64,000 bases of DNA from Haloprofundus halobius (GTDB lineage: Archaea; Halobacteriota; Halobacteria; Halobacteriales; Haloferacaceae). Made by a program: the position numbers and the translations under genes. Location of the stretch: NCBI RefSeq assembly GCF_020097835.1, contig NZ_CP083666.1, positions 2,108,001-2,172,000 on the forward strand, given 5' to 3'. Shown piece after piece: positions 50,023 through 62,756 of the stretch (within the stretch, counting starts at the first letter, position 1; each line of letters starts with the position of its first letter). Below the pieces are notes generated by a model, which worked only from the letters and a program-made list of their open reading frames with translations, did not search any database and was not told the DNA's origin.

Positions 50023-50673
50023 TCAGGGCCCAAACCCCGCGATGTCGGCACCGACCGTCGCTAACGCATCAGCGGGATTCGGGTCGTTGTCAGCGAGATG
50101 CGTGTACCGGTGTTCCGGGACGCTAGACAGAGCCGCTTCGACGGCCTCGCTGTACGTCTCGACGCCCGGTTCCGTTGGGTCGTTTCCCTCCCAGACATCT
50201 CGGATGACCGTCATCGAGTCGATACGCACTTCCAAACTGTGCGGCTCATAGCGAGTCAACAGTTCGGAGAGCCCGAGCCGGAGGGCGACGTACTCGGCGG
50301 TGTTGTTCCCCGCGTGGGAACCTACCGGTCGGCCGAGATTAGCGAGTTGTTCCTCCGAAGCGTCCATGATGACAGCGCCCGCACCAGCGGGACCTGGGTT
50401 GCCGCGTGAACTCCCATCGACGTAGAGAACGAAGGAATCGCCGTTTGGCTCGAGGAGAGGTGGTCGAGTGAGTTCCGATGCCAGCAGGTCTTCGAGCGCG
50501 TCTCGTAGCTCTGCCCGGGTCGTCGTGGGGTCGAACAGGCCGCCGAAACCGGGGACAGCGTCATCGATCACATCGACAGCGACTGTCATCTCGTAGCCGA
50601 CCTCCGCGAGTACCTCGTCGACGAGGATGGCGAGAGGCGAAAGGTGTTCGACTGGAAGAGATTCGTCGGTCAT
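50023..50673 (-). CDS. rnhA: Ribonuclease HI family protein
   Basis: A 216-residue RNase HI-like protein. A haloarchaeal N-terminal domain of about 75 residues precedes the catalytic core: SFVLYVDGSSRGNPGPAGAG (first Asp), GNNTAEYVALRLGLSELLTR (Glu), LEVRIDSMTVIRDVWEGNDP (Asp) and ADNDPNPADALATVGADI (last Asp). Such enzymes degrade the RNA strand of RNA-DNA hybrids. It lies 153 bases after a TumE-like gene on the same strand and appears intact. It may be part of the mobile region rather than the main housekeeping copy. Confidence 0.88.
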   Translation of the reverse strand: MTDESLPVEHLSPLAILVDEVLAEVGYEMTVAVDVIDDAVPGFGGLFDPTTTRAELRDALEDLLASELTRPPLLEPNGDSFVLYVDGSSRGNPGPAGAGAVIMDASEEQLANLGRPVGSHAGNNTAEYVALRLGLSELLTRYEPHSLEVRIDSMTVIRDVWEGNDPTEPGVETYSEAVEAALSSVPEHRYTHLADNDPNPADALATVGADIAGFGP

Positions 50674-50826: not shown

Positions 50827-51261
50827 TCAGACCGTCCAGAACGCTCGTTGTCGGTCTTCAATTTCGGAGAGGACTGTCGAGAGGACGTCCCGCCAATCTT
50901 CCGGGTATGATGTATCTTCTCCGGGCGTCGGTGCGTTCGGTCCAGGGTGGATGTGGTCGCGCGCGTTGTGACTCGACGGATGGTGGTCCCAGCGATAGTC
51001 GAATGTTCCATCGTGGTGGGTCTCATGATAGTGGATAGAGAAATCTCCGTTCGAATACCAGATTATCTCGAGGCGGGCGGTCTCGACGCTATTTGGGTAG
51101 AAGTTCGAATCGTATATACAGACGAGTCGGTCAGGGGCGAACGCCGGGCGGAGAGTAGTTCGGGTGAATCGACCATCGGTTGCAAGTCGTTCGTCGATGG
51201 TTTCGAGTCGGTCAAAATCGACCGGCGCTCCGCTTTCATCCGTATTCTCCCCGCCTGTCAT
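50827..51261 (-). CDS. TumE/DUF6516-like protein, module 1 (putative toxin)
   Basis: A 144-residue protein. Its core ARLEIIWYSNGDFSIHYHET and DYRWDHHPSSHNARDHIHPG resembles the TumE (DUF6516) toxin family, which has a strand-rich fold with YxYH, R-D and HxH motifs. The C-terminal helix DWRDVLSTVLSEIEDRQRAF W closes it. It overlaps by four bases the HTH gene upstream (51258-51827), the normal toxin-antitoxin layout. A clear paralogue pair sits at 61779-62756. Toxin activity is a prediction only. Confidence 0.6.
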   Translation of the reverse strand: MTGGENTDESGAPVDFDRLETIDERLATDGRFTRTTLRPAFAPDRLVCIYDSNFYPNSVETARLEIIWYSNGDFSIHYHETHHDGTFDYRWDHHPSSHNARDHIHPGPNAPTPGEDTSYPEDWRDVLSTVLSEIEDRQRAFWTV

Positions 51262-51827
51262 GCCGTGCTGCGTTCAACTGAGCCGTCAGAGCCGGACAAC
51301 GCCTGTTCGAGAAGCGTGATACGGCGCTGCGTTGTCTTCCACATTGAGATGTCATCCCAGACAGCCTCGAGGGAACGATCGGACTCAGCTGCAAACTGCG
51401 AAAGAGAGACCTCCTCTGGAGACTCGACGCCGAATTCAGCCGCGTACGATTGTTCGCGCTCTGTCTCGTCTTCGAGGAATCCGAGCAATTCGTTACTCGT
51501 ATACTGATTGCGAAGTGTCTGGACACGTCGCCACCGGAGGAATTCGTCGTTGCGTTCGTACGTCGCTGGTGACGTCGTGACTCGTGTGGCGATTCCCATT
51601 CGCTCGAACCACTTCAGATATTCACGCGCCGCGTCGACTCCATGACCAGCGAGGTCAGCGACTTCGTCGACAGGTGTAGGGCGATTAAGTGCAAGGACTG
51701 CATCGAAGAAATCGTCGCGTGTGCGTTCGCCGCGGACGACATCCTCAGGTGACGTCAAGGCATCGAAGTCCGGTTTCTCACCACGCTCGTGGGGGGTAGC
51801 CTTCAGGTCGTCGCGTGGTTCCTCCAT
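51258..51827 (-). CDS. Winged-helix regulator, module 1 (putative antitoxin)
   Basis: A 189-residue protein. The N-terminal winged helix includes TRDDFFDAVLALNRPTPVDE, VADLAGHGVDAAREYLKWFE and MGIATRVTTSPATYERNDEF with the RMGIA...PATYxRN signature shared with 62229-62756. A coiled-coil-like second half contains YTSNELLGFLEDETEREQSY. It likely binds DNA and represses its own operon. Its stop overlaps the start of the TumE-like gene. I recall such haloarchaeal regulators as DUF7342 but am not certain. Confidence 0.65.
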   Translation of the reverse strand: MEEPRDDLKATPHERGEKPDFDALTSPEDVVRGERTRDDFFDAVLALNRPTPVDEVADLAGHGVDAAREYLKWFERMGIATRVTTSPATYERNDEFLRWRRVQTLRNQYTSNELLGFLEDETEREQSYAAEFGVESPEEVSLSQFAAESDRSLEAVWDDISMWKTTQRRITLLEQALSGSDGSVERSTA

Positions 51828-52159
51828 AGAAGCATGCAGAGGTTGAAACGGAATAAGTCTTTTCTCTATGGTATTATCCCGTTTGAAGGTGGCCGAGTAA
51901 ACTACTCTGCCCTACTCGCTTCGCTCGTTGAGGAAAGCAAGCACCCGATGCGACGGAGGTGCAATGGGGAGATGAACCTGCGAATGTCGAGCCCTTGTAT
52001 GTCTTGTTCAGCCGGTCGGGATACACCGACGATCTCAGACACGCAGCTGATATCCGAAGCAATGTCTGTCTCTATCTCTATCCCCGAAGAGATCCTTACG
52101 AGTGCATAGGAGTAACTCGACGAGATCGAGATGTCCCGCCTAGACTTGTACTGAAGATA
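51828..52159. other. Intergenic region holding a UPF0175-like antitoxin remnant
   Basis: No intact gene is seen. At 52062-52109 a 15-codon frame, MSVSISIPEEILTSA then TAG, is the start of a UPF0175-type antitoxin; two more stops follow in the same frame (TAA and TGA) while LDEIEMSRLDLY continues. The block at 51890-51980 resembles repeated insertion-element flanking sequence, with a direct tract CTACTCGCTTCGCTCGTTGA. Confidence 0.45.
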
Positions 52160-53092
52160 TCATATCCCCACTCCCTGCAGGTCCTCGTATCGCTCTCGAA
52201 GCGTCACAGGAGACGTCCCAGCTGCCTCTGCAATCTCTGCCTGCGTGACTGCCTCACCGAATTCGTCGACGGCCATGGAGATACACGCTGCTGCAATGCC
52301 TGAAGGCGCTCGCCCGTTCGCTACTCCCTCATCCCAGGCGATATCTGCAAGTTCGAGTGCCTGCCGTTCGGCCAGTCGTGAGACATCACACACAGACGCA
52401 ATCCGCGGCACGAGTTGCTTCGGTCGCTGTACCACTGTCGCTAACCCCAACTCGGCGTTGAGCACTTTGTAGTCGTTCTTCACGCGCCCGCGTCGACACG
52501 CAGCCACCTGTGCAACTTCATCGAGCGTCCGAGTCACATTCGTACATCGACACGCTGCGTACAGACTTGCCGCTGTCATCGACTCAATTGATCGTCCGAC
52601 GAGGAGGTTCTCTTTTTGAGCCGTTCTGAATATTTGTGAGGCGAACTCGGTCACGCTTTCGTCAACTCCGAGCGCACTGCTCATCCGCTTGATCTCACCA
52701 AACCCATGTGCGAGGTTTCGCTCCTGTTTTGAGCCGAACCGCGCCCGGTTCTGCTGCTTTCGAAGCCGGCCGAACTCTCGTTGTCTTTTACCTGAGAGCG
52801 TCTTGCCGTATCCGTCCGTTTTGTAGCCGATTTCGGTCGACAGTCCCCGATCGTGCCGACTTACTGTCAACGGCGCCCCAGTCCGTTTTCGACTCCGCTC
52901 TTCCGATGAAAAGACACGTGGCTCAGCCGTTTTGTCAATCCAGTATTCGTTGACAATCAGCCCGCACTCGCTACACCGGTGTTCACCGCCTTCAGTTCGG
53001 AGTCTGCCGTCACATTCGGGGCAGTGTTTGGTTTGGATGGTCTGTCCGTTCGATTCGTCAAACGTTGTGGTGTAGACATTTCTCGTCGTCAT
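52160..53092 (-). CDS. tfb: Transcription initiation factor TFB (accessory copy)
   Basis: A 310-residue archaeal TFIIB from ATG 53092 (MTTRNVYTTTFDESNGQTIQ). The zinc ribbon is HCPECDGRLRTEGGEHRCSE CGLIV, followed by the B-finger/linker (VFSSEERSRKRTGAPLTVSR) and two cyclin-like repeats (about 115-205 and 210-305), the second ending with PVTLRERYEDL. TFB recruits RNA polymerase to TBP/TATA complexes. Haloarchaea use several TFBs for different promoter classes; this one lies in a mobile region and may serve its genes. An upstream form to 53131 is unlikely. Confidence 0.9.
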   Translation of the reverse strand: MTTRNVYTTTFDESNGQTIQTKHCPECDGRLRTEGGEHRCSECGLIVNEYWIDKTAEPRVFSSEERSRKRTGAPLTVSRHDRGLSTEIGYKTDGYGKTLSGKRQREFGRLRKQQNRARFGSKQERNLAHGFGEIKRMSSALGVDESVTEFASQIFRTAQKENLLVGRSIESMTAASLYAACRCTNVTRTLDEVAQVAACRRGRVKNDYKVLNAELGLATVVQRPKQLVPRIASVCDVSRLAERQALELADIAWDEGVANGRAPSGIAAACISMAVDEFGEAVTQAEIAEAAGTSPVTLRERYEDLQGVGI

Positions 53093-53161
53093 CTTCGATC
53101 TCGGGACGACCACTTTCTGACCGCCCCGCACCCCTCGGGGGCGGCGATAAAATTCTCTGAG

Positions 53162-53206
53162 TTACCGTCTCACAGTCGTCCCTGGTCGGACGAACCAACC
53201 ATCCGG
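53162..53206 (-). pseudogene. Fragment of a SWIM-protein C-terminus
   Basis: Fifteen codons on the minus strand encode PDGWFVRPGTTVRR followed by TAA. This matches the end of the SWIM zinc-finger protein at 54267-54818 (PDGRFVRPGTIVRK) almost exactly. It lies upstream of the tfb start and shows that a second copy of the SWIM gene once existed here and was lost, probably by recombination. Confidence 0.65.
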
Positions 53207-53311
53207 CTGCTCTGTCAACAAGGGGTGAGAAAATGTATCGCTGAACATCACGGTAACCCTGTGAGAAGGACTATTCTTGTCCGTTGTGAGCTAGCCTAAG
53301 CTATCTACTTG

Positions 53312-53926
53312 ATGCGCCAGCCAGCGCGTACGATTGCCATCGTTGGACCAGATGGAAGCGGAAAAACCACACAGGCGAAGCTCCTCGTTGAGCACCTCCA
53401 AGCGATCGGTTACGACGCTCACTACGTTCACGCGCTCTACTACCTCTCTGACACAATTCCCTGTGCAGATCGACTCCGGAGACAACTTGGCCCACGGAAG
53501 ACACAAACGCACGGTCCGAGTACTTCCCGTCTATTGTACCTTCTTCGACGGGTACTGTTCGCCGTGGTTGGCTTTTGGTTTGCACTGGTCACGATAGGGG
53601 TTGTTTCCATTCGGTTTCATGACCAAGTTGTCGTCTTTGACCGGTATTATCACCAATTCTTCTACGATGTGTATGGACCGTCGGGTGTCTTCCTTTCATG
53701 CCTGCTTCCCCAACCGGGACGGGTGATTTACCTGGATGCCGACCTGGCCACCATCCAATTGCGCATGGACACGACAGACCGAGCAGTCGATACGGAGTAC
53801 TACGCGACCGTCATTGAGTTCTACGACGAGTGTTCAACTGAAGGGTGGCTCTCCTTCTGTGCAAAACTCCCGAGAGAATCCCTTCACGACCGAATTTTCG
53901 AGGCGATTTCTTATGGTCTCGATTGA
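53312..53926 (+). CDS. Thymidylate-kinase-like P-loop kinase
   Basis: A 204-residue protein from ATG 53312. The P-loop TIAIVGPDGSGKTTQAKLLVEH matches thymidylate kinase-type enzymes. A DR[YFH]-like motif appears as VVFDRYYHQFFYDVYG, and PQPGRVIYLDADLATIQLRM resembles the LID region. Two hydrophobic stretches (LFAVVGFWFALVTIGVVSI) are unusual for a soluble dTMP kinase and suggest membrane association. Such proteins often cluster with polysaccharide genes. Activity on dTMP is not assured. The TTG three bases earlier is an alternative start. Confidence 0.7.
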   Translation: MRQPARTIAIVGPDGSGKTTQAKLLVEHLQAIGYDAHYVHALYYLSDTIPCADRLRRQLGPRKTQTHGPSTSRLLYLLRRVLFAVVGFWFALVTIGVVSIRFHDQVVVFDRYYHQFFYDVYGPSGVFLSCLLPQPGRVIYLDADLATIQLRMDTTDRAVDTEYYATVIEFYDECSTEGWLSFCAKLPRESLHDRIFEAISYGLD

Positions 53927-54266
53927 TGGAGAGTACTGCACAAAAGTCGACTGCCAAGCGAACCCTGTCCACACGGCCGGGTTGATGGCGACATCGGCGA
54001 CGAGATCACGTATCTGATCGGCGATATCGATCTTCTGCTTTATCGGCGGCGGTTCTGAGGATCATTGTGTGTTCGGATGGTGGGGACGTATCCGGTACAC
54101 CTTCGTGGACAGCACTAACCCACCGGCTACGTTAGTGTATCTCCTTTTATACTTGGTATACGAATGTGCCAGGTGGAGACTCTCTCGTGAAAATCAGGAG
54201 CCGATAGTATACTTGGGTCCTTCCGCGTGGGTACCCCTGTAAGTTTGTCACCACCCTACCGCCAGC
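53927..54266. other. Intergenic region, possible gene remnant
   Basis: A plus-strand frame with no start codon reads RVDGDIGDEITYLIGDIDLL LYRRRF before a stop at about 54058. It could be the tail of a lost protein. The rest has no coding character. The region is AT-richer near 54140-54170 (ATACTTGGTATACG). Confidence 0.4.
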
Positions 54267-54818
54267 TCACTTCCTCACAATCGTCCCTGGTCGAACAAAC
54301 CGGCCATCCGGTCGTGGCGTCTTTGCTGCGCGAATTTCCATGTCGACGCGACGAATGTGCTTACACCCATTCACAGGATCTCGTTTCTCGTAGTCAGGAC
54401 AGCTACAACTCCGTGCGGCGATATCGACGACGTACGTATTCCCGCTCTCGCTGTGGACGACGTACTGCGGTCCACACGTTCCGAAACGGACGTCGATAGC
54501 TTCGGTTATCGCCCGGCGAGTTCGCGGGTCGTCGATCGAATACCCACCATCAGTTACGGCATCGGTCGATGATTCGATAGTGCACGATTCGATGAAATCC
54601 TCAACGTCGTTGCGCTCTTGGCCGCATTTCTCACAGCGCCAGTAGCTCGTTCGGTACTCGCGTACCTGCGGATCTGGGAGTTCTACGTAGCTGTCTGTTG
54701 GTTCTCGGCCGGGTACCCATTCGGCGACTCGAAGGAGTTGGTGTTGCCTCCAGTTTCGAGAACGGCTGAGTTGGTTACTGGTCGGTCCTGCGTCCGCGGG
54801 TTGCTTCTGACTCGACAT
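54267..54818 (-). CDS. SWIM zinc-finger protein
   Basis: A 183-residue protein with a SWIM domain, SCSCPDYEKRDPVNGCKHIR R, of the form CxCxxxxxx...CxH, near residues 135-155. A preceding CEKCGQERNDVEDFIESC motif supplies another possible zinc site. SWIM domains bind DNA, RNA or protein, and small SWIM proteins are common beside mobile elements and TFB genes in haloarchaea. The C-terminus PDGRFVRPGTIVRK is duplicated as a fragment at 53162. ATG 54818 is used. Confidence 0.85.
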   Translation of the reverse strand: MSSQKQPADAGPTSNQLSRSRNWRQHQLLRVAEWVPGREPTDSYVELPDPQVREYRTSYWRCEKCGQERNDVEDFIESCTIESSTDAVTDGGYSIDDPRTRRAITEAIDVRFGTCGPQYVVHSESGNTYVVDIAARSCSCPDYEKRDPVNGCKHIRRVDMEIRAAKTPRPDGRFVRPGTIVRK

Positions 54819-54937
54819 GGTAAATACGGAGACGACTAAGTGAACTTCGCGCCTCCAGCCCTCTGGGGCGCGAAAAACAGGCCAAGAGTAGAGGCGATAC
54901 CCGTGCGAGTGCGAACTGGGTTTGTGAATTCGGTCTA

Positions 54938-55996
54938 CTACTGCCGCTTGTCACCAGTCACAGCCTGGTCACGCAAGTTATAGAGGCGCTCATACTCGAA
55001 CTCAGGATGAGTCCAATACTCATATCCACTAAGTACCTTGTCTCGATCTCGTTCCACCAATTCGTGAAGCAATTCCTTCGCTGCCCCAGTAAAAGAACAC
55101 AGTTCGTTGTCATAGAGCCACTCTAGCGCGTCAGATTGCCCCCGATTTTCGGTGACACGTCCGCGCCAGAAATCATCCTCAGGGTCCCACTCTCTGTTGG
55201 CTTGATCGGGTACTCTCGCTTTGTCGAATACGACGATGTCACCGGGAGCCAACACATCCCGTTCAAGAAGTACTGAGAGAGTCGTTTTATATTCGCCACT
55301 TTGCGTCTGCTTCTCCTGTTTCTGTCGGCGTCTGGTCATGTACTCTTCGGCTTCTGTGACCGGGATAACCTGCTGTGTATTGAGTAAGATTCGGCCTTGG
55401 TGTTCGTGGGCCTCGATACGGACACACGTGATGTCGACTCCATACTCCTCGATGAGCCACATGACCGGAGAAGTGATTTCGATGCCATACTCGCCTGCAG
55501 CAAGCAGAATACGTGGCTTATCGCTCAACTCGAAATCGGCCCATCCATCCTCTGTCTTGGTTACGTACTCTCCACCGAGATTCCTATCGAGGAACTCAAC
55601 GAAATCTGCACCAACATCCTCTGGAGAGTACTCCTCGTTGTCTCTCGTATTCCAAAAGGTTCGATACTCTTTTTGAACGTCCTCGGCTGTTAGTGTAGAG
55701 CAATAGCTGGCGTATTTTATCGCTTGGAGGTCGGTCGTTTTGTCTGCTTTGTCTCGCTTGAGTTCGACGACAACGAGTTTCCCGGATGTGTCAAGAGCAA
55801 GGACGTCAAGTCGGTCGGCTGTATCCTCGAAGCCTTCAAACTCAGATGTGACCACGAGAAGTTCTTCACCCAGAATGCGTGGTTCATCGATGACCCACTC
55901 CTCGAGGTCTTGCCGTTCGAGTATCCCTAGTGATGAGAACTGATGTTCAGGAAGGTGGTTGAGAGATTGAGTATCCTTGTCAACAGAAAATATCAT
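54938..55996 (-). CDS. NucS/DUF91-like PD-(D/E)XK nuclease
   Basis: A 352-residue protein from ATG 55996 (MIFSVDKDTQSLNHLPEHQF). The N-terminal nuclease domain has the PD-(D/E)XK pattern DRLDVLALDTSGKLVVVELK with downstream lysine and Q/Y residues (DKADKTTDLQAIKYASYCS), as in NucS/DUF91. The rest contains TEAEEYMTRRRQKQEKQTQS and ends with a helical region. Such proteins can cut mismatched or branched DNA or act in defence. It may be intact. It lies in the region between the SWIM gene and DoxX. Confidence 0.75.
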   Translation of the reverse strand: MIFSVDKDTQSLNHLPEHQFSSLGILERQDLEEWVIDEPRILGEELLVVTSEFEGFEDTADRLDVLALDTSGKLVVVELKRDKADKTTDLQAIKYASYCSTLTAEDVQKEYRTFWNTRDNEEYSPEDVGADFVEFLDRNLGGEYVTKTEDGWADFELSDKPRILLAAGEYGIEITSPVMWLIEEYGVDITCVRIEAHEHQGRILLNTQQVIPVTEAEEYMTRRRQKQEKQTQSGEYKTTLSVLLERDVLAPGDIVVFDKARVPDQANREWDPEDDFWRGRVTENRGQSDALEWLYDNELCSFTGAAKELLHELVERDRDKVLSGYEYWTHPEFEYERLYNLRDQAVTGDKRQ

Positions 55997-56145
55997 GCAC
56001 ACGCATAGTATAGCTGTGTGGTCAAATAATATCTCCCACACACTATTACGATACTGTACTCAGCCGGTCGAAGAGTTACCCAGCCGTATCGCTGGTTCTA
56101 TGTGAAGAGGAAAACAGGAAAAAGCACGAGAAGAGACGGAGAGCG

Positions 56146-56715
56146 CTACCCGAGGATGTAGTCGAGCTTCGGGTACTTCTCGATGAGCGCGACGCCGTCG
56201 ATCTCGTAGCGTTCGACGAGTGCGTCGAGGCCGAGGATGCGGCCAGCACCGAACGCTGCGACCGCGAGGAACACCAACGCGTACATGAAGTCGCTGTTGA
56301 TGAATCCGTGCGCAAGGTCCCAGTTCCCGAAGTAGAAGAGGACCATCATCATTGCCCCGAAGAACGCCGCCAGGCGGGTCAACAGGCCGACCATGATGCC
56401 GAGGCCGATGGCGACCTCACCCCACGGGACGGCGATGTCGACGAAGCTGACGAACCACGGCGTCTGGCTCATCCACAGGAACACGCCCGCGAGCGGGTTG
56501 CCGTTGGTCGCGGCGACGTTCGCGAGGTAGCCTTGCGAGGCGAATCCACCGAGGACCTTCGTCACTCCCGAGTAGAGAAACGCGAAGCCGATGACGAGTC
56601 GGAGTGCGAGGACGAACCACGCACTAAGGCTGTGGGCCTGTCCGCGAATAGTGTAGCCACCGATGGAGCTCTCAAAGGAATTTACAGTAGTTGTTGGAAT
56701 GTTGTTTGCAGACAT
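56146..56715 (-). CDS. DoxX family membrane protein
   Basis: A 189-residue membrane protein with four hydrophobic helices. DoxX signatures are VLALRLVIGFAFLYSGVTKV, GEVAIGLGIMVGLLTRLAAF and FGAMMMVLFYFGNWDLAHGF. A C-terminal amphipathic segment (LVERYEIDGVALIEKYPKLD) follows. DoxX proteins relate to quinone-linked oxidoreductases and thiol oxidation at the membrane; the exact partner here is not seen. The 5' side has a short AT-rich region (ATTAGATAATAAACACATATTG) suited to a promoter. It is complete. Confidence 0.88.
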   Translation of the reverse strand: MSANNIPTTTVNSFESSIGGYTIRGQAHSLSAWFVLALRLVIGFAFLYSGVTKVLGGFASQGYLANVAATNGNPLAGVFLWMSQTPWFVSFVDIAVPWGEVAIGLGIMVGLLTRLAAFFGAMMMVLFYFGNWDLAHGFINSDFMYALVFLAVAAFGAGRILGLDALVERYEIDGVALIEKYPKLDYILG

Positions 56716-57240
56716 TGGGAGAAACCTCCTACCTCTAGTAACGTTGTATTAGATAATAAACACATATTGAATGACTGTGTCACGCAGCCAAGGCATACAC
56801 ACGAGCGTATTCTCCAGTAACATCCTCCCCGCCGTAAACGGCGGGGCTTCCCACACGGTGGGAATCCGGCTTGGAAGGTTTCAGTCCGAAAACACCGAGA
56901 ATGGCGTCGCCCCGGTTCCGCTACAAGCTCTGATGGGGTGGAGCGATTTGGCGACTGCACAGAAATACATCCGTATCTCGGGGACAGCAACGGCTGATGC
57001 GCTGCGTCGAGTCCATCACCGGTAGGGACTTCTCAATCGTTCTTCAGTAGCAGTCTGCGAGATACAGAGGGTGTATTCAGTACGGGTGCGGGATTTCTTT
57101 CGTGGTAAACCACGCTGCATCACCTCTTAGGTCCTCATGTGAATAGAATCGGTGATTCTGTGGCTAAGAGCGTGAATCAGTATAATCTTCGCTAGAACAA
57201 ATCGAAATGGCAGAATATGCCGATATCTGTCCGTAGCGGC
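56716..57240. other. IS200/IS605-type hairpin and integrase tail between genes
   Basis: The 5' part holds an AT-rich promoter for DoxX. CCCCGCCG-TAAA-CGGCGGGG at 56827-56846 is a perfect 8-base stem like the ends of haloarchaeal IS200/IS605-family elements. The tail of a tyrosine recombinase follows (56901-57025). A copy of the 20-base repeat core, GATACAGAGGGTGTATTCAG, is at 57061-57080. Nothing else is seen up to 57240. Confidence 0.6.
56901..57025 (+). pseudogene. Tyrosine recombinase C-terminal fragment
   Basis: The frame encodes PVPLQALMGWSDLATAQKYI RISGTATADALRRVHHR and a stop. The GWSDLATAQKYI block is the end of an XerC/XerD-type integrase with the active-site tyrosine in QKY. The Arg-His-x-x-Arg part and all of the N-terminus are missing, and the IS-type hairpin sits directly upstream. 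It is a remnant of the integrase of a lost element. Confidence 0.7.
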
Positions 57241-57579
57241 TCAACGGTCGTCACCGCGTTTGAGTACTGGGCGGGCCTCGTGGAACCGTGACCCTCGTGT
57301 CACTGTCTCTTCGTGTCGATTAAGCTCAATCACTCCAGCAGTCTGTAATTCAAGAAGGTGGGCGTGGTGGAGTTCATAGACGAGTGTGACGTACTCCTCG
57401 CAGGAGAGGACTTCCTCATCCCGAATAATTGGTGTTGCATCGATTGTCTCTTCTGTTTCTAATGCAGTCACCACGCGCTGTTGTTGCTCTCGTAGCACAG
57501 TCAGGAAGTCCCCACGACTCGAATCCGCCCGCTCATTCATCTCCTGTCTCACCTCCGATATGGGAATTCTTGCATCCAT
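57241..57579 (-). CDS. DUF7344-like winged-helix regulator
   Basis: A 112-residue protein from ATG 57579 (MDARIPISEVRQEMNERADS). It has a compact winged-helix: RGDFLTVLREQQQRVVTALE, then CEEYVTLVYELHHAHLLELQ and TAGVIELNRHEETVTRGSRF. This is the arrangement of haloarchaeal DUF7344-type regulators, like 4154 and 59099. It may act with the HalOD1 and Bat-like genes to its right, all on the minus strand. Targets are unknown. Confidence 0.7.
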   Translation of the reverse strand: MDARIPISEVRQEMNERADSSRGDFLTVLREQQQRVVTALETEETIDATPIIRDEEVLSCEEYVTLVYELHHAHLLELQTAGVIELNRHEETVTRGSRFHEARPVLKRGDDR

Positions 57580-57694
57580 ACTTGGAGCCCGTATCCTGAT
57601 ACGGAATGACCTCAACATCAGGCATTAGTTTCCGGCCTATTCGAGACGTCCCACAGTTCGCACACACAATTTGATACGGAAGCATCGATACCGA

Positions 57695-57988
57695 TTATGT
57701 GTTCTCGGTGGGGGTTGCCTCAATAATTCCGTTGCTGCTTACTGTCACGTCAAAACCCTCGTAACAGAACGAAATACTAACACAGTTCCCGAGACCGTTA
57801 GATGACTCTGTAGCCAGTTTCTCAAGAGCGTCTGTTTCAATAGTAGACTGGAGCGGGGTCAAATGCAGTGGGTCCCTGTCAAGAGCGGTCGCAACAACTC
57901 CAACGACTGCTGAACTCGCCGAGTCACGAGTACTGTCGTACGTCGCCCGGAAACATTCTGTATCCACATCGAATTCAATAACACTCAT
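57695..57988 (-). CDS. HalOD1 output domain protein
   Basis: A 97-residue protein from ATG 57988 (MSVIEFDVDTECFRATYDST). The core shows SSAVVGVVATALDRDPLHLT, then TPLQSTIETDALEKLATESS and SISFCYEGFDVTVSSNGII, the HalOD1 pattern. It lies between a DUF7344-like gene and a Bat-like regulator, all in the same direction, forming a small regulatory island. An alternative upstream start at 58039 adds 17 residues. Confidence 0.8.
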   Translation of the reverse strand: MSVIEFDVDTECFRATYDSTRDSASSAVVGVVATALDRDPLHLTPLQSTIETDALEKLATESSNGLGNCVSISFCYEGFDVTVSSNGIIEATPTENT

Positions 57989-58110
57989 CGACGGTGTGAT
58001 TTTACCAGCCAGAATCTCTTGGGGGGGTTCCATCAACATAATGGAGGCTTTCTATGGGGTTGAGGGTGGCTTTTGCTTGCGCAACATACTTTTATATGAA
58101 GTTTCCATCC

Positions 58111-58761
58111 TCACTCGTCGGGAGTCACCAGGGTACTCGCTACGAGACGTCGAATACCGCGTTGTAACCGTGATGAGACCGCTTTCCGGGTGATCTTGAG
58201 TTCGTCTGCGAGATCTCCTTGAGTTGCGTCTCGCGGCGAGTCAAAGTATCCACGGGAATACGCCAGTACCAACGCTTTCCGTTGGCCATCTGTTAGATTG
58301 AACTCCCGATCAGACCTGATCGACGAAATAGCGTGTAGCTCAGTAAGCTCAACCGGAATACCGTTCTCTTGACAGTACGTCTGGAAATCTGAGAGGCCCT
58401 GTTGTTCGCTTGCACGGACCTCAAACGTCCATTGCTTGTTGTTTCCAATTCCAGAAAGGAGCGTAATATCGGTGTTGACGATAGCCGTCAGAATACTCTC
58501 ATAGTTGAGATTCCAATCAATACGAACAAACATCTGTTTCTCCAGTTGATCGATTACTTTGACCTGATTGATACCAAGATCAGCACTCAAATCTGTGGTG
58601 AGTTTAGCCGTGTCATCGGCAGAAATCCAGAAATAGGGGACAACCGCCTCACCCGTTGGTACAACCCGGTCTAACTCAATAGTTACATCGGTTAATTGCT
58701 CGAAAACAGCACTCAACGGGAAATCCGACTGCTCGATAGTGAATGAGGCCTCAATAGCCAT
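58111..58761 (-). CDS. Bacterio-opsin activator-like HTH regulator
   Basis: A 216-residue regulator of the same family as 3323-4030. An N-terminal sensory part (MAIEASFTIEQSDFPLSAVF) precedes the HTH_10 C-terminus: REFNLTDGQRKALVLAYSRG and DATQGDLADELKITRKAVSS then RLQRGIRRLVASTLV. Sequence composition is AT-richer than that of the first copy, suggesting separate origin. It probably controls nearby genes. The start ATG 58761 follows an A/T-rich stretch. Confidence 0.85.
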   Translation of the reverse strand: MAIEASFTIEQSDFPLSAVFEQLTDVTIELDRVVPTGEAVVPYFWISADDTAKLTTDLSADLGINQVKVIDQLEKQMFVRIDWNLNYESILTAIVNTDITLLSGIGNNKQWTFEVRASEQQGLSDFQTYCQENGIPVELTELHAISSIRSDREFNLTDGQRKALVLAYSRGYFDSPRDATQGDLADELKITRKAVSSRLQRGIRRLVASTLVTPDE

Positions 58762-59098
58762 ACCTGATTACTAGCGATTCAGCCTTTTGGGTTAGTCGCT
58801 ACTGATCCTCGGGGTACTTCCACCGTTTAGTAAACCAATGTCCTGTACTTACCGACCACCGTCCTTCGCAGATCAACTCTCACCTCATGCTGCATTCGCG
58901 CTGTGTATTACAGCAGCCGGTGAGCGAATTCCTCAACAACTGTCAGTATTGGATTGCAAGATATAGAGGGTGTAGTCAGCAAACGGTCGTCGTTTGTTCC
59001 ACCTAATTAGCGACGAAACGGCCGTTCAGTAGGTATGCGGACCTCCTATCCAAAGCCCTATCTCTTCATCTCTCCTACTTGCGACAGGATGGGAGAGA
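58762..59098. other. Intergenic region with the second 72-base repeat
   Basis: No gene is seen. The 72-base repeat copy B is at 58911-58982. The rest is divergent promoter sequence for the two flanking regulators, with an AT-rich stretch near 58990-59020. Confidence 0.55.
58911..58982 (+). repeat. 72-base dispersed repeat, copy B
   Basis: This copy is 65/72 identical to 28731-28802 without gaps. The differences are clustered at GAATTCC versus GATCTTC and single changes elsewhere. It lies between two divergent regulators, just as copy A lies beside an accessory gene cluster. Confidence 0.75.
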
Positions 59099-59497
59099 AT
59101 GACAAGCAACGAGGACGAGTCGGATGATTCAGCGTCCGAGTCGACGGATTCAATGAAGGACACTCCTCTCGAAGAGATACCACTCTCGGTGGATGCGATG
59201 CTGGATATCCTGGCAAACAGTCCCCGTCGTCACTTGCTGGAGTACCTGCGAGACCAGCCGGAGGGGACCGCCACGGTCGAGGAAGCCACCAAAGTCTTTC
59301 TCACGCAGCTTGCCAGAGAGAGTGGCCAACAGCCGAACCACGACGACGCGCAGGTCGACCTACATCATCATCACCTCCCGAAGTTAGCGGACGCCGGCGT
59401 CATAGAGTACGACGTCCGCACACAGACGATTCGTTACCGACCCCACGATCGGCTCGAAGAACTACACGACCTCATTCAGGACTTCCTGGAGGAGTAA
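59099..59497 (+). CDS. DUF7344-like winged-helix regulator
   Basis: A 132-residue protein. After an acidic Ser-rich N-terminus (MTSNEDESDDSASESTDSMK) the winged helix reads DAMLDILANSPRRHLLEYLR, then VEEATKVFLTQLARESGQQP, then VDLHHHHLPKLADAGVIEYD and RTQTIRYRPHDRLEELHDLI. The string of four histidines before LPKLADAGVIEYD matches the family pattern (H-x-H/LPKL). It is divergent from the Bat-like regulator. Function is presumed to be local transcription control. Confidence 0.85.
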   Translation: MTSNEDESDDSASESTDSMKDTPLEEIPLSVDAMLDILANSPRRHLLEYLRDQPEGTATVEEATKVFLTQLARESGQQPNHDDAQVDLHHHHLPKLADAGVIEYDVRTQTIRYRPHDRLEELHDLIQDFLEE

Positions 59498-59720
59498 GCC
59501 ACCCCTTGTGGCGTTGTAGGCATCCTCTGGATCTACCGATTCGATAGCTCGGATCAGAACACGAGGTTGTGCGGGATATGCGCTCTGTATTCACCACGGC
59601 CTAAGAATAATCATCAGTAAATGACGAGTTCCAACAGGGCCTTCTCAGTATATGACGTGACTGTCATAATATCACTAAGACATTAGTGAAACTTTTCGGT
59701 GATGCCTCCGAGTCAGTAGT

Positions 59721-61178
59721 ATGACCGGTCAACGGGCATTCCTTGCTCTCGTCGTTGCACTACTCGTCATTGTATCAGGATGTGCAGGGGGTGGGGTGAC
59801 AGATTCGTCACTAGAATCAGAAACCACGTCGCCAACAACCGCTGCTTCGACCCACACGGCGACCGAATCAACATCCACCGCAAACGGTACCGTAGATGTC
59901 CATTATATCAACGTGGGGCAGTCAGCGAGCACACTCATCGTCACGCCACAGAATGAGACAATACTCATCGATACGGGTGACTGGCGTAATGACGGAGAGT
60001 ACGTCCTCGAGTATTTGAAGCAACAGAACATCACCCGAATCGATCACCTCGTCACATCACACGCAGACGCTGATCATATTGGTGGGCACGCGGCCGTTAT
60101 CGAGTACTACGAAACACAAGCTAATGGTGTTGGTGCCGTCTACGATCCTGGACTCTCGTCGAGTTCACAAACGTACGAAGAGTACCTTGATGCAGTAGAG
60201 ACATACGACGTCCCGCTCTACCAGGTTGCCTCGGACGACACACTCCCCGTTGCAGGCGTAAACGTCTCTGTTCTTGCCCCACCAGAGGAACCTCTCGCAG
60301 GTGGGCAACGAAACGAGAACAGTATCGCGCTGATGGTGACACATGGTGAGCAACGATTCCTCTTTACTGGTGACGCTGAATCTGAAGGTGAGGAGTATCT
60401 CGTCGAGAAATACGGCTCCAAGCTCAACGCGACTGTTTTCCAGGCAGGTCATCACGGAAGCCGGTCAAGCAGTAGTGATGCTTTGCTTGAAGCGAGTTCG
60501 CCACAGGTCGCCGTTATCTCTAGTGCCTACGACTCTCAGTACGGGCATCCACATAACGAGACACTCACTCGATTCGCCGACCGTTCGATCCCGGCCTACT
60601 GGACGGCAGTTCACGGCAATGTAGTCATTTCGAGTGATGGTGAGAACCTCACCGTCTCAACGCAACGGAACGCGACAACGGACCCAACCGAACTGCGCTC
60701 CGCAGATCCAATCGAACCGGGAAGCGATGATCCGGTTGCAGAGCGTACCACGTTAACTGGCGGGATCAGCGACCCAGAGCCAATTGGCACCGATGGCGGA
60801 ACAGAGACGTCGACGCCAACTGAGACTCCTGACGAGTCGACCGATGCAGCACTCGCACTCGTAGACGTTCATGCGGACGCTGAAGGGAATGACAACGAGA
60901 ACCTCAATGACGAATATCTCGTCTTCGAAAATACGGGCGACGACTCGCTCGATATGTCCGGTTGGACCATCGAAGACGAAGCGGGACACACGTATACCGT
61001 TCCCTCAGGCTTCACTCTTGAGCCTGATGCGCAAGTAACACTCTATACGGGGAGTGGGACGGATTCAGACACAGAGCTCTACTGGGGATCCAGTAGCGCA
61101 ATCTGGAACAACGGCGGTGATACGGTGATCGTTACTGACGATACCGGGACTGGGGTACTGGAGGAGAGCTACGAATGA
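59721..61178 (+). CDS. ComEC-like MBL-fold lipoprotein with C-terminal lamin-tail domain
   Basis: A 485-residue secreted lipoprotein: MTGQRAFLALVVALLVIVSG then the lipobox Cys. A Ser/Thr linker leads to an MBL domain (DVHYINVGQSASTLIVTPQN, then HLVTSHADADHIGGHAAVIE, then RFLFTGDAESEGEEYLVEKY and VFQAGHHGSRSSSSDALLEA), as in the nuclease part of ComEC proteins. A second linker precedes an LTD beta-sandwich (about 385-485: NLNDEYLVFENTGDDSLDMS GWTIED). It probably hydrolyses extracellular DNA or nucleotides. A DUF3006 gene overlaps its stop. Confidence 0.88.
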   Translation: MTGQRAFLALVVALLVIVSGCAGGGVTDSSLESETTSPTTAASTHTATESTSTANGTVDVHYINVGQSASTLIVTPQNETILIDTGDWRNDGEYVLEYLKQQNITRIDHLVTSHADADHIGGHAAVIEYYETQANGVGAVYDPGLSSSSQTYEEYLDAVETYDVPLYQVASDDTLPVAGVNVSVLAPPEEPLAGGQRNENSIALMVTHGEQRFLFTGDAESEGEEYLVEKYGSKLNATVFQAGHHGSRSSSSDALLEASSPQVAVISSAYDSQYGHPHNETLTRFADRSIPAYWTAVHGNVVISSDGENLTVSTQRNATTDPTELRSADPIEPGSDDPVAERTTLTGGISDPEPIGTDGGTETSTPTETPDESTDAALALVDVHADAEGNDNENLNDEYLVFENTGDDSLDMSGWTIEDEAGHTYTVPSGFTLEPDAQVTLYTGSGTDSDTELYWGSSSAIWNNGGDTVIVTDDTGTGVLEESYE

Positions 61179-61462
61179 CCGAAAAGACATACACACTCGT
61201 ACTTGACCGATTCGAAGAGGACGACGCGGTCCTGTTGGTCGAAGAAGACGGCGACCTCGTCGACGAAATCGTCCTCCCCAAAGCGATGCTTCCGGTCGAC
61301 GGACAACATCAGGATGCACTCTTCTCGGTTCAGCATACAAGTGAGACAGTAACGGAACTGCAGTACGATTCGGAGCAAACACAGGAGCGCAAAGAGAGTG
61401 CGCAAGGACGATTCGATCGACTTTCGCAGCGTCTTCCAAGCGAAGACATGGACGAAACCTAA
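61175..61462 (+). CDS. DUF3006 domain protein
   Basis: A 95-residue protein whose ATG overlaps the stop of the MBL/LTD gene (ATGA). It begins MTEKTYTLVLDRFEEDDAVL then EDGDLVDEIVLPKAMLPVDG, the DUF3006 beta-barrel pattern, followed by a charged helix. DUF3006 genes regularly follow ComEC-like MBL genes in bacteria and archaea, so a functional link is likely although the role is unknown. It is complete. Confidence 0.85.
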   Translation: MTEKTYTLVLDRFEEDDAVLLVEEDGDLVDEIVLPKAMLPVDGQHQDALFSVQHTSETVTELQYDSEQTQERKESAQGRFDRLSQRLPSEDMDET

Positions 61463-61479
61463 CTTCGATACCTCTCCTT

Positions 61480-61794
61480 TCACTCGGTAGTGGCTGTCTT
61501 GAGTCGGCTGATAAGTTCCTTTGCTGTATTACTGATTCGCTGCAACCGGTCACCGACTGCTTCGGGGTCGTCGCCTTCCCACGCAGTCAGGTACAACGCA
61601 GAGCCACTCATGTCGAGACCGAAGTGCCGACCGACAATGTAGGCCGTTCCCTCTGCTTCGACCTCCCGCTTCGCTCGCTCTGCTTCGTCAAGCGCTGACT
61701 GGTGAAGGATCGCATGCGCAAGTTCGTGAATCAGCGTCCCGACGACTGCTGCGTCGTCCGGTTTCTGCTTGACCTCGATTACTGTGACGACCAT
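61480..61794 (-). pseudogene. ArdC-like / ImmA-IrrE-type metallopeptidase C-terminal fragment
   Basis: The frame gives TLIHELAHAILHQ with a zinc-peptidase HExxH, then REVEAEGTAYIVGRHFGLDM with the third ligand (E) and SGSALYLTAWEGDDPEAVGD. This is the C-terminal end of an ArdC-type antirestriction or DUF955 protein as found on mobile elements. The N-terminal ssDNA-binding domain is missing; the fragment's GTG/ATG lies inside the end of the TumE-like gene (overlap 61779-61794). It is judged a remnant, although a small active peptidase cannot be ruled out. Confidence 0.6.
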
Positions 61795-62228
61795 ACTGTC
61801 TCAATGCGTTGCTCTATCGCCGTGAGCACCGTGGAGTATACTTCGAGTGGATGCAGCGACGGGAGTTCGAGGTCAGTAATTTCGTCCGCAGACGGTGGCT
61901 TGTGGAAGTGCAACCGGGTGTTGTGCGTGTTCGGGTGGCGATCCCAGCGGCACTCCCAGTGTTCCCCGCTCTCGTGTTCTTCGACATAGTGGACCGAGAA
62001 ATCACCAGTCGTGAACCACCGAATGTCGAGTCGGGCCGCTGTCACCGAATCTGGGTATCGTCCAGCGTCAAGCAGTCCACGAAGCAGTCGGGGTTCGTAC
62101 GTATCCGGGTCGAACGCAGTCTCGGCGACGAGTAAATCCGACGACAGGTGCCGCTCCAGCAGGCGCAGCGTCTGTCGATCCGGTGGGCCTGTCGAGTGTG
62201 GGGCCGGATCCTCCGGTGGCTGACTCAT
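61779..62228 (-). CDS. TumE/DUF6516-like protein, module 2 (putative toxin)
   Basis: A 149-residue protein. Its core ARLDIRWFTTGDFSVHYVEE and ECRWDRHPNTHNTRLHFHKP has the same order as 50827-51261. The C-terminal helix LEVYSTVLTAIEQRIETVW also matches. Its ATG follows the TAG of the HTH gene directly, with no gap. The pair is therefore a diverged copy of the first module. Toxicity is predicted from the family, not shown. Confidence 0.6.
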   Translation of the reverse strand: MSQPPEDPAPHSTGPPDRQTLRLLERHLSSDLLVAETAFDPDTYEPRLLRGLLDAGRYPDSVTAARLDIRWFTTGDFSVHYVEEHESGEHWECRWDRHPNTHNTRLHFHKPPSADEITDLELPSLHPLEVYSTVLTAIEQRIETVWSSQ

Positions 62229-62756
62229 CTACGCTGGAATCAGATGCCCGTCGTTCTGGGAGAGCTGGCGAGCAAGTTCGTACAGCCTGATGTCGCGAAT
62301 CACGCCCTGCCACTCGCTGACTGCGGTCATCCGCTCGTGAATGGTTTCGTGACTATCGTGATCAAACACGTTGACGGCTGTTGGGTCTGACGTTTCGAAT
62401 TGGGCTTCGTATTCCGTTCGCTGGGCTTCAAGCGCCTCCACGCGGTCGATGATTGCTTCGACAGAGAGCTCGGTTGCGATTCGACTGGCGTCCTGCCATT
62501 CGAGATACCCCTCGTTTCGTTTGTATGTTGCCGGGCGGCTGTCTCTATCGGCTCGGGCGATGCCCATCTCCGCCAAACGGTCGAGATGCTTTTTCGCGGC
62601 GTTTGGAGAGCAGTCCGCAAGCTCAGCGATTTCGGTGTACGCAGTCGGAGAGGTGACCCCGAGGACGACGTCGTAGACACGACCAAACGTGTCTGTTCCC
62701 ATCTGCCACCGTCGCTGAGCATCGCTGGACGCGGGGGCCGGATCGAACTCGGTCAT
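62229..62756 (-). CDS. Winged-helix regulator, module 2 (putative antitoxin)
   Basis: A 175-residue protein. The winged helix includes DTFGRVYDVVLGVTSPTAYT then EIAELADCSPNAAKKHLDRL and AEMGIARADRDSRPATYKRN, followed by a coiled coil (IIDRVEALEAQRTEYEAQFE). The MGIA...PATYxRNxxxLxW signature matches 51258-51827. It is followed immediately by the TumE-like gene. It probably binds its own promoter to the right, where an AT-rich ATATATCTTTGG lies on the plus strand. Confidence 0.65.
   Translation of the reverse strand: MTEFDPAPASSDAQRRWQMGTDTFGRVYDVVLGVTSPTAYTEIAELADCSPNAAKKHLDRLAEMGIARADRDSRPATYKRNEGYLEWQDASRIATELSVEAIIDRVEALEAQRTEYEAQFETSDPTAVNVFDHDSHETIHERMTAVSEWQGVIRDIRLYELARQLSQNDGHLIPA

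What the first reader, a model, noticed from the sequence alone, without database searches (positions are those of the whole stretch)
50827..62756. The same HTH + TumE-like gene pair occurs twice, 10 kb apart
The pairs 51258-51827/50827-51261 and 62229-62756/61779-62228 share order, coupling (4-base overlap or 0 gap), the MGIA...PATYxRN signature in the regulator and the RWDxHPxxHN core in the partner. TumE (DUF6516) is a toxin family, and a winged-helix partner with a coiled coil is a plausible antitoxin. Haloarchaeal versions are poorly described, and two diverged copies in one mobile region suggest an addiction or defence module. Differences in composition argue for independent arrival or long divergence.
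Basis: partly seen in the sequence, partly recalled or inferred. Interest (0 to 1): 0.8.

Follow-up and report, generated by a model that had tools for sequence, protein, structure and literature searches.

The report
Haloarchaeal toxin-antitoxin-like gene pair
Salt-loving archaea carry many copies of a two-gene unit, a DNA-binding protein followed by a partner distantly resembling the bacterial toxin TumE, and this little-studied unit is probably a family of toxin-antitoxin systems, though nobody has yet tested whether it is toxic.

Summary
In detail: both pairs exist with the stated coupling and motifs. The regulators are DUF7342. The window partners match no curated family; some relatives match TumE below its cut-off. 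The two pairs are part of a larger set: this genome has 11 DUF7342 genes, 8 followed by a partner. Elsewhere DUF7342 lies directly upstream in 75 of 80 partner loci and 20 of 20 more (17 new), and 118 of 139 DUF7342 hits have a partner. Both genes are under purifying selection, co-diversify and share conserved upstream elements. The TumE link is remote but supported by profile controls and by strand order in predicted models. True haloarchaeal TumE is a separate system with another HTH and toxin first, 30 of 30 loci. Best reading: a type II toxin-antitoxin module, DUF7342 the antitoxin and autorepressor, the partner a TumE-like toxin, perhaps an RNase. Toxicity is untested. A non-toxic regulatory pair remains possible.

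The parts
51258..51827 (-). pair 1, gene 1: DUF7342 regulator, probable antitoxin and autorepressor, 189 aa
   Evidence: Pfam PF24033 102.3 bits, cut-off 31.6
50827..51261 (-). pair 1, gene 2: partner, probable TumE-like toxin, 144 aa; overlaps gene 1 by 4 bases
   Evidence: no curated family; model pLDDT 90.9; family-level link to TumE
51828..51890 (-). region with the pair 1 promoter/operator-like element: ACGGGATAA ... TTATTCCGT, the right arm about 30 bases before the start codon
   Evidence: conserved in 15 aligned upstream regions; imperfect inverted repeat
62229..62756 (-). pair 2, gene 1: DUF7342 regulator, probable antitoxin and autorepressor, 175 aa
   Evidence: Pfam PF24033 80.5 bits
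61779..62228 (-). pair 2, gene 2: partner, probable TumE-like toxin, 149 aa, gap 0
   Evidence: 37% identical to the pair 1 partner; 90-93% identical to seven plasmid copies
62757..62815 (-). region with the pair 2 promoter/operator-like element: ACATATATGAG ... CAAAGATATATTGAG, about 35 bases before the start codon
   Evidence: a 12-column block 96% identical across 15 upstream regions, against 30-40% in the furthest upstream windows

Best explanation
Each pair is a type II toxin-antitoxin operon, antitoxin first. DUF7342 (a protein with weak winged-helix matches) is the antitoxin; it binds the partner and represses the operon at a conserved element near the TATA-like box. The partner is a TumE-like toxin with an extra N-terminal helix and strand. 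Its conserved H-Y ... R-W-D-x-H-P ... H-x-H residues lie on neighbouring strands and would form the active site. By analogy with TumE it would stop translation, perhaps as an RNase. When the module is lost or the regulator is depleted, freed toxin would halt growth, which would explain retention on plasmids and in variable numbers in genomes. Shown here: coupling, co-diversification, selection on both genes, a conserved upstream element, and probable remote homology to TumE at profile and predicted-fold level. Inferred: toxicity, neutralisation, RNase activity, autorepression, addiction.
For: Coupling: 75 of 80 partner loci have DUF7342 directly upstream on the same strand (my count from the table); 20 of 20 partners picked by partner search alone, 3 of which turned out to be loci already among the 80 (L053, L095, L104), so 17 new; 118 of 139 DUF7342 hits have a superfamily partner downstream. 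These surveys overlap in part. Asymmetry expected of TA: the 5 exceptions among the 80 are 3 partner fragments (second half only), 1 with about 1.6 kb between the genes and 1 at a contig edge, whereas 21 of 139 DUF7342 hits lack a detected partner, 8 of these being fragments or halves of split genes. DUF7342 copy number varies from 0 to 12 per genome, 50 of 58 genomes positive. Plasmids: 119 and 138 records. Selection: omega 0.11-0.20 for the partner and 0.08-0.18 for DUF7342, six comparisons each. Co-diversification: Spearman 0.68 over 192 pairs, largest of 300 permutations 0.04. TumE link: TumE is the most frequent weak Pfam hit, 14 of 57 members, best E 4.8e-4; hhalign score 22.7, reached by 0 of 200 column shuffles, maximum 21.0; the TumE profile reports 93 of 194 partners at E below 10 against 0 of 194 reversed; same strand order and motif placement in two predicted models. 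Two DUF7342 genes of this genome sit beside other TA-type genes, a nucleotidyltransferase and a Fic/Doc protein.
Against: No toxicity data. The two window partners do not hit TumE. All TumE signals are weak: hhalign probability only 7.6% and E 0.0046 for the best comparison; only 3 of 194 partners reach E below 0.1 with the TumE profile; a comparison with a smaller alignment found nothing; the c1 clade alone gives E 0.21, and the three c1-type partners of this genome scanned singly do not hit TumE. The c1 clade lacks the R and D of the TumE signature. The histidine strand of the TumE model has low confidence, pLDDT about 56-61. Foldseek finds no confident match in PDB or BFVD. The upstream element is an imperfect inverted repeat and may be mostly promoter. 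Coupling, co-diversification and selection would also fit a non-toxic two-gene regulatory unit.
Confidence: 0.62

Rival explanations
1. A two-gene transcription-control unit: DUF7342 is a repressor and the partner a ligand-binding or co-regulator subunit, without toxicity.
For: Strict pairing, co-diversification and the conserved upstream elements fit. The c1 clade lacks the R and D of the putative TumE active site. In four plasmid records looked at, DUF7342 is annotated as a transcriptional regulator (2) or HTH protein (2).
Against: Multi-copy, patchy and plasmid-borne distribution, probable remote homology to an experimentally validated toxin family (PMC10584680 passages), and a histidine-rich conserved core as in many enzymes.
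Confidence: 0.22
2. An anti-viral (abortive infection) module: same parts, but selected for protection against haloviruses rather than addiction.
Against: No PADLOC match to the partners. Defence neighbourhoods were not tested. No relatives in viral contigs (pair 1 partner family) or phages (pair 2 partner), which says nothing either way.
Confidence: 0.1
3. The partner is a ubiquitin-E2-like protein, since the best solved neighbours of its model are Atg10 and E2 enzymes and the pair 2 partner has an HPN motif (E2 motif recalled).
For: VIA-align Z 6.8 (4gsk_Y, Atg10, rmsd 4.0, 98 aligned) and many E2 chains at Z 4-5.
Against: Z under 8 may be a common arrangement only (note); no conserved cysteine: best Cys column 50 of 129 in c0 and 23 of 65 in c1. 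E1- or ubiquitin-like neighbours were not looked for.
Confidence: 0.03

Closest known systems
TumE-TumA toxin-antitoxin superfamily (DUF6516, PF20126; Durairaj et al. 2023, PMC10584680, passages seen)
   Same: Two-gene unit with a partner predicted to bind DNA; toxin predominantly downstream (clusters 1, 2, 4, 6 in the paper); alpha+beta fold with an antiparallel sheet; motif order Y ... R-[WY]-D ... H ... H on matching strands for clade c0; diverse unrelated antitoxins already proposed for TumE.
   Different: Below the TumE cut-off; about 140-170 aa, with an N-terminal helix and strand, against about 100 aa; antitoxin family DUF7342; gene order opposite to true haloarchaeal TumE; the c1 clade has G-W-H ... 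H-x-Q in place of R-[WY]-D ... H-x-H.
Haloarchaeal TumE + HVO_A0114-like HTH pairs (two copies in this genome, C2:76009 and C3:74097)
   Same: HTH + TumE, same class of organisms, in 3 of 30 loci within 2 kb of a DUF7342 gene.
   Different: Toxin gene first, HVO_A0114-like HTH second, in 30 of 30 loci, of 38 matches listed (PF25212 confirmed in the one scanned); clear TumE profile scores.
DUF7342 (PF24033)
   Same: Both regulators are members over the curated cut-off.
   Different: Pfam gives no function; no paper in the library holds the name, so the pairing described here has no source that I found.

Membership tests
DUF7342 (PF24033) | score over the Pfam gathering cut-off of 31.6 bits | tested here: met
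   102.3 and 80.5 bits
TumE (PF20126) | score over the Pfam gathering cut-off of 23.4 bits | tested here: not met
   window partners: no hit at E up to 1. Of 57 relatives scanned 14 hit, best E 4.8e-4, score not shown; the best scored singly is L093, 20.4 bits, E 5.1e-4
TumE (PF20126) | conserved core R-[WY]-D ... H ... H-x(x)-H after an aromatic strand (as seen in 25 haloarchaeal TumE) | tested here: met
   c0 clade, to which both window partners belong by motif: H 128/129, Y 126/129, R 127/129, D 117/129, H 127/129, H-x-H 127 and 128/129; TumE: R, D, N, H, H 25/25. The c1 clade does not keep R and D.
TumE (PF20126) | fold: two helices packed on an antiparallel seven-stranded sheet (paper) | tested here: inconclusive
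   partner H16-27 E32-38 E45-50 E59-69 E74-82 E85-93 E102-105 H123-140, pLDDT 90.9; haloarchaeal TumE E4-12 E18-25 E36-43 E49-54 E65-68 E75-77 H82-98, pLDDT 77.9 from 6 sequences, about 56-61 over residues 61-80; same order, but the models could not be superposed
TumE (PF20126) | toxic on expression, inhibits translation, neutralised by its partner | not testable with these tools
   needs experiment
Type II toxin-antitoxin system | two small co-oriented, coupled genes conserved as a unit | tested here: met
   75 of 80, 20 of 20 (17 new), 118 of 139
Type II toxin-antitoxin system | autoregulation at an operator next to the promoter | tested here: inconclusive
   conserved element and imperfect inverted repeat upstream; binding not shown
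Type II toxin-antitoxin system | toxin arrests growth and antitoxin neutralises it by direct binding | not testable with these tools
   needs experiment
Ubiquitin E2-like proteins | conserved catalytic cysteine | tested here: not met
   no Cys column above 50/129 (c0) or 23/65 (c1)

The most novel reading that the evidence does not exclude
DUF7342 is a haloarchaeal antitoxin platform that has taken several toxin types (TumE-like c0, the re-tooled c1 clade, a nucleotidyltransferase, perhaps Fic/Doc). c1, with G-W-H ... H-x-Q in place of the TumE residues, would be an enzyme with chemistry of its own on a TumE-like fold, and the whole would be one of the most abundant archaeal toxin-antitoxin families, so far unnamed.
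Probability: 0.2. Interest if true: 0.78.

Novelty: new variant of a known kind. Interest (0 to 1): 0.57.

Why it matters
If right, it names a two-gene system whose regulator is present in 50 of 58 sampled haloarchaeal genomes, up to 12 copies each, and whose partner is annotated 'hypothetical protein' wherever a feature is listed in the 80 plasmid rows shown. It would extend the recently found TumE toxins to a large archaeal branch with its own antitoxin family, testable in Haloferax volcanii, where DUF7342 also occurs (control).

Tried and rejected
TumE membership by direct profile scan: rejected for the two window genes. First profile-profile comparison with the tools' alignments (A3 against A4) aligned unrelated regions at E 0.18; repeated with 129 sequences and 50% match columns it gave E 0.0046, probability 7.6%, with the motifs in register; reversed columns scored 9.8 and DUF7342 against TumE 12.9. 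The c1 clade alone against TumE: E 0.21, not significant. In single scans of ten relatives, 6 hit TumE and 4 did not (L036, L037, L038 of this genome, and L096); L036 hit SPDY/DUF317 at E 0.0044, below its cut-off. Foldseek in PDB and BFVD: no match below E 0.1. VIA-align of the partner and of TumE: best Z 6.8 and 5.6, with unlike lists, so it gave no support for a shared fold. E2-like enzyme: rejected for lack of a conserved Cys. Local duplication of one pair: rejected, since pair 2 is 90-93% identical to plasmid copies elsewhere and 37% to pair 1. Viral carriage: no relatives in viral contigs or phages at the sensitivity used. MNT-HEPN: no HEPN-like gene was noticed among the ORFs after the nucleotidyltransferase in L280 (by eye, no profile scan). 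Literature: searches for DUF7342, for PF24033/HVO_A0114/HVO_A0261, for TumE with toxin-antitoxin, for TumE/TumA/DUF6516 and for haloarchaea with toxin-antitoxin or DUF6516; among the rows listed one paper, PMC10584680, is relevant to TumE, and only passages of it were seen. The others were seen as listings only; two searches listed 20 of 74 and 20 of 4,379.

Limits and dropped rows: the partner's start codon was chosen nearest to the regulator's stop, so its gap counts (-4 in 40, 0 in 16, -8 in 12 of 78) lean towards coupling; adjacency itself does not depend on this. Three sequences (L051:7030, L088, L091) were left out of the partner alignment and 80 were thinned to 55 at 85% likeness, to which the two window partners were added. 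Of the DUF7342 rows listed, six (in G029, G032, G057, G056, G048, G039) and the unlisted ones were not fetched; the 11 of this genome were read separately. One search counted ORF-level hits (fragments and split genes included) in 129 loci, and a partner by BLAST E up to 1e-4 among ORFs starting within about 400 bases. The surveys share some genomes.
Full report
OBSERVATION. Both gene pairs are present at the stated coordinates. Pair 1 is 51258-51827(-) followed by 50827-51261(-) with a 4-base overlap; pair 2 is 62229-62756(-) followed by 61779-62228(-) with no gap. The regulators share 29% identity (E 2e-17) and the partners 37% (E 5e-26). Both regulators are DUF7342, PF24033 (102.3 and 80.5 bits, cut-off 31.6). 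The partners reach no cut-off in Pfam and have no NCBIfam, PADLOC or PHROG hit.

THE GENOME. The window lies on a 3.2 Mb contig of a 3.95 Mb genome. That genome has 11 DUF7342 matches over cut-off on four contigs. Eight of the 11 are followed by a partner: the two window pairs, those at C1:83008, C3:93231 and C2:47142, and three more diverged ones after C4:1954, C3:72137 and C1:108441. Of the other three, one is followed by a nucleotidyltransferase (PF18765), one, 62 bases on, by a Fic/Doc-family protein (PF02661), and one is an N-terminally truncated copy.

COUPLING ELSEWHERE. A scan of genome contigs found 197 stretches encoding a relative of the pair 1 partner, of which the best 80 were kept, all in archaeal records, mostly named haloarchaea. 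In 75 of the 80, DUF7342 lies directly upstream on the same strand (counted from the table). Gaps, with the start codon chosen nearest to the regulator's stop, are mostly -4 (40), 0 (16) and -8 (12) among 78 measured. The five exceptions are three loci with only the second half of a partner (L088, L091, L121), one with about 1.6 kb between the genes (L110), and one at a contig edge (L123). From the other side, 50 of 58 genomes of the class have DUF7342 at E up to 1e-10, with up to 12 copies, and 118 of 139 DUF7342 hits in 129 fetched loci have a superfamily partner downstream; of the 21 without, 8 are truncated or split copies and one has a nucleotidyltransferase instead. With about 11 DUF7342 genes in a genome, chance adjacency would be well under 1% (inference). 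In a phylum-wide sample the partner profile finds 64 of 392 genomes, all 64 in the window's own order. Plasmid records: 119 and 138 with a match; in the 40 rows shown of each, wherever a feature is listed it is 'hypothetical protein' (one row also names a helix-turn-helix protein), and some rows have no annotation.

FAMILY ANATOMY. The partners fall into two clades, c0 (129 sequences, RWDxHPxxHN type) and c1 (65 sequences, GWHxD type), homologous by profile comparison (probability 98.8%, E 1.3e-16). In c0 the most conserved residues are H and Y of one strand (128/129, 126/129), R, D, H, P (127, 117, 127, 128 of 129) and H-x-H (127, 128 of 129); c1 has G and H of G-W-H in 65/65 and H and Q of H-x-Q in 64/65. 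Distances between regulators and between partners correlate (Spearman 0.68 over 192 pairs; largest of 300 permutations 0.04; agreement of clusterings, adjusted Rand 0.43 for 2 groups, 0.66 for 5, 0.82 for 12), as expected for linked genes that travel and diverge together; this does not by itself show binding. Both genes are under purifying selection by simple Nei-Gojobori counts: omega 0.11-0.20 for the partner and 0.08-0.18 for DUF7342 in six comparisons each.

RELATION TO TumE. TumE (DUF6516) was shown to be a translation-targeting toxin neutralised by its TumA partner (PMC10584680, passages seen). TumE is the most frequent weak Pfam match among 57 partners (14 members, best E 4.8e-4; the next family has 4); in single scans 6 of 10 relatives hit it, at best 20.4 bits against a cut-off of 23.4, and 4 did not, among them the three diverged partners of this genome. 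Profile against profile, c0 and haloarchaeal TumE score 22.7 (E 0.0046, probability only 7.6%), reached by none of 200 column shuffles (mean 11.6, maximum 21.0), with R-W-D on R-Y-D and the histidines in register; an earlier comparison with a smaller alignment failed, and c1 alone does not reach significance. A TumE profile reports 93 of 194 partners at E below 10 (3 below 0.1) against none of 194 reversed, and the c0 profile reports 14 of 25 TumE (7 below 0.1) against none reversed. Predicted structures agree in the order of strands: the partner (pLDDT 90.9) has H16-27 E32-38 E45-50 E59-69 E74-82 E85-93 E102-105 H123-140, with RWD at 90-92 in the fifth strand and H-x-H at 103-105 in the sixth; haloarchaeal TumE (pLDDT 77.9, six sequences, low confidence over 61-80) has E4-12 E18-25 E36-43 E49-54 E65-68 E75-77 H82-98, with RFD in the fourth strand and HHYH in the fifth. 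The partner thus looks like TumE plus an N-terminal helix and strand. I take this as probable remote homology, not membership; the models could not be superposed, and solved-structure searches with the two gave unlike lists.

HALOARCHAEAL TumE IS A DIFFERENT SYSTEM. Of 59 genomes, 27 have TumE over cut-off, including two copies here. In 30 of 30 TumE loci fetched (of 38 matches listed) there is an adjacent HVO_A0114-like HTH gene, and the toxin gene comes first; the one HTH scanned is PF25212. The DUF7342 module has the opposite order and another regulator family.

PROMOTER ELEMENT. Upstream of 15 pair-1-type operons lies a conserved block (12 columns at 89% identity against 27-42% further upstream) with an imperfect inverted repeat, roughly CGGAATAA-N16/17-TTATTCCG: mean 5.3 of 9 matches at the best offset, 4.8 at the next, against 2.4 (sd 0.8) over all offsets. 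Upstream of 15 pair-2-type operons lies another, with 12 columns at 96% against 30-40% in the furthest windows. They sit about 30-35 bases before the start codon, where a TATA-like box would be in leaderless haloarchaeal genes (recalled), so they may be promoter, operator or both.

MECHANISM. Most likely a type II toxin-antitoxin operon with DUF7342 as antitoxin and repressor and the partner as a TumE-like toxin acting on translation. Coupling, selection and co-diversification are shown, remote homology to TumE is probable; toxicity, neutralisation, RNase activity and autoregulation are inferred. The main rival is a non-toxic regulatory pair.

NOVELTY. The kind (TumE-like toxin with a DNA-binding antitoxin) is known. 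The family, its regulator, its gene order and its abundance in haloarchaea were not found in the paper searches made, in a library that lacks most subscription journals and preprints.

Noticed in passing
L037:4556-4870(+), L041:2459-2773(-): Two nearly identical true TumE genes in this genome (C3:74097 and C2:76009), each followed by an HVO_A0114-like HTH gene; toxin first in 30 of 30 haloarchaeal TumE loci fetched.
   Followed up: yes
window 52160-53131(-); L281-L283, L113, L114, L117, L119: A TFIIB-family transcription factor gene lies upstream of pair 1 here and upstream of several pair-2-type operons; a TFB-like ORF is found in 14 of 84 loci searched.
   Followed up: partly
L035:4047-4544(-), L225, L233, L239, L195, L245: Recurrent N-terminally truncated or split DUF7342 copies without a partner; three of them (L035, L225, L233) are convergent with an intact pair.
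   Followed up: partly
L039:1990-2993(-), L280: DUF7342 coupled by a 4-base overlap to a nucleotidyltransferase gene (PF18765 in L039) instead of the usual partner, in two genomes of one genus.
   Followed up: partly
L040:2508-3496(+): DUF7342 followed after 62 bases by a Fic/Doc-family gene.
   Followed up: no
window 61480-61794(-): A short ORF with an HELAH zinc-peptidase-like motif overlaps the 3' end of the pair 2 partner; similarity to MPTase-PolyVal and IrrE domains below their cut-offs, perhaps a remnant.
   Followed up: no
window 50023-50673(-): RNase H-like gene (PF13456, PF00075) just downstream of pair 1.
   Followed up: no
L136, L143, L151: True TumE pairs and DUF7342 genes lie within 2 kb of each other in three of 30 TumE loci, suggesting clusters of such modules.
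   Followed up: no
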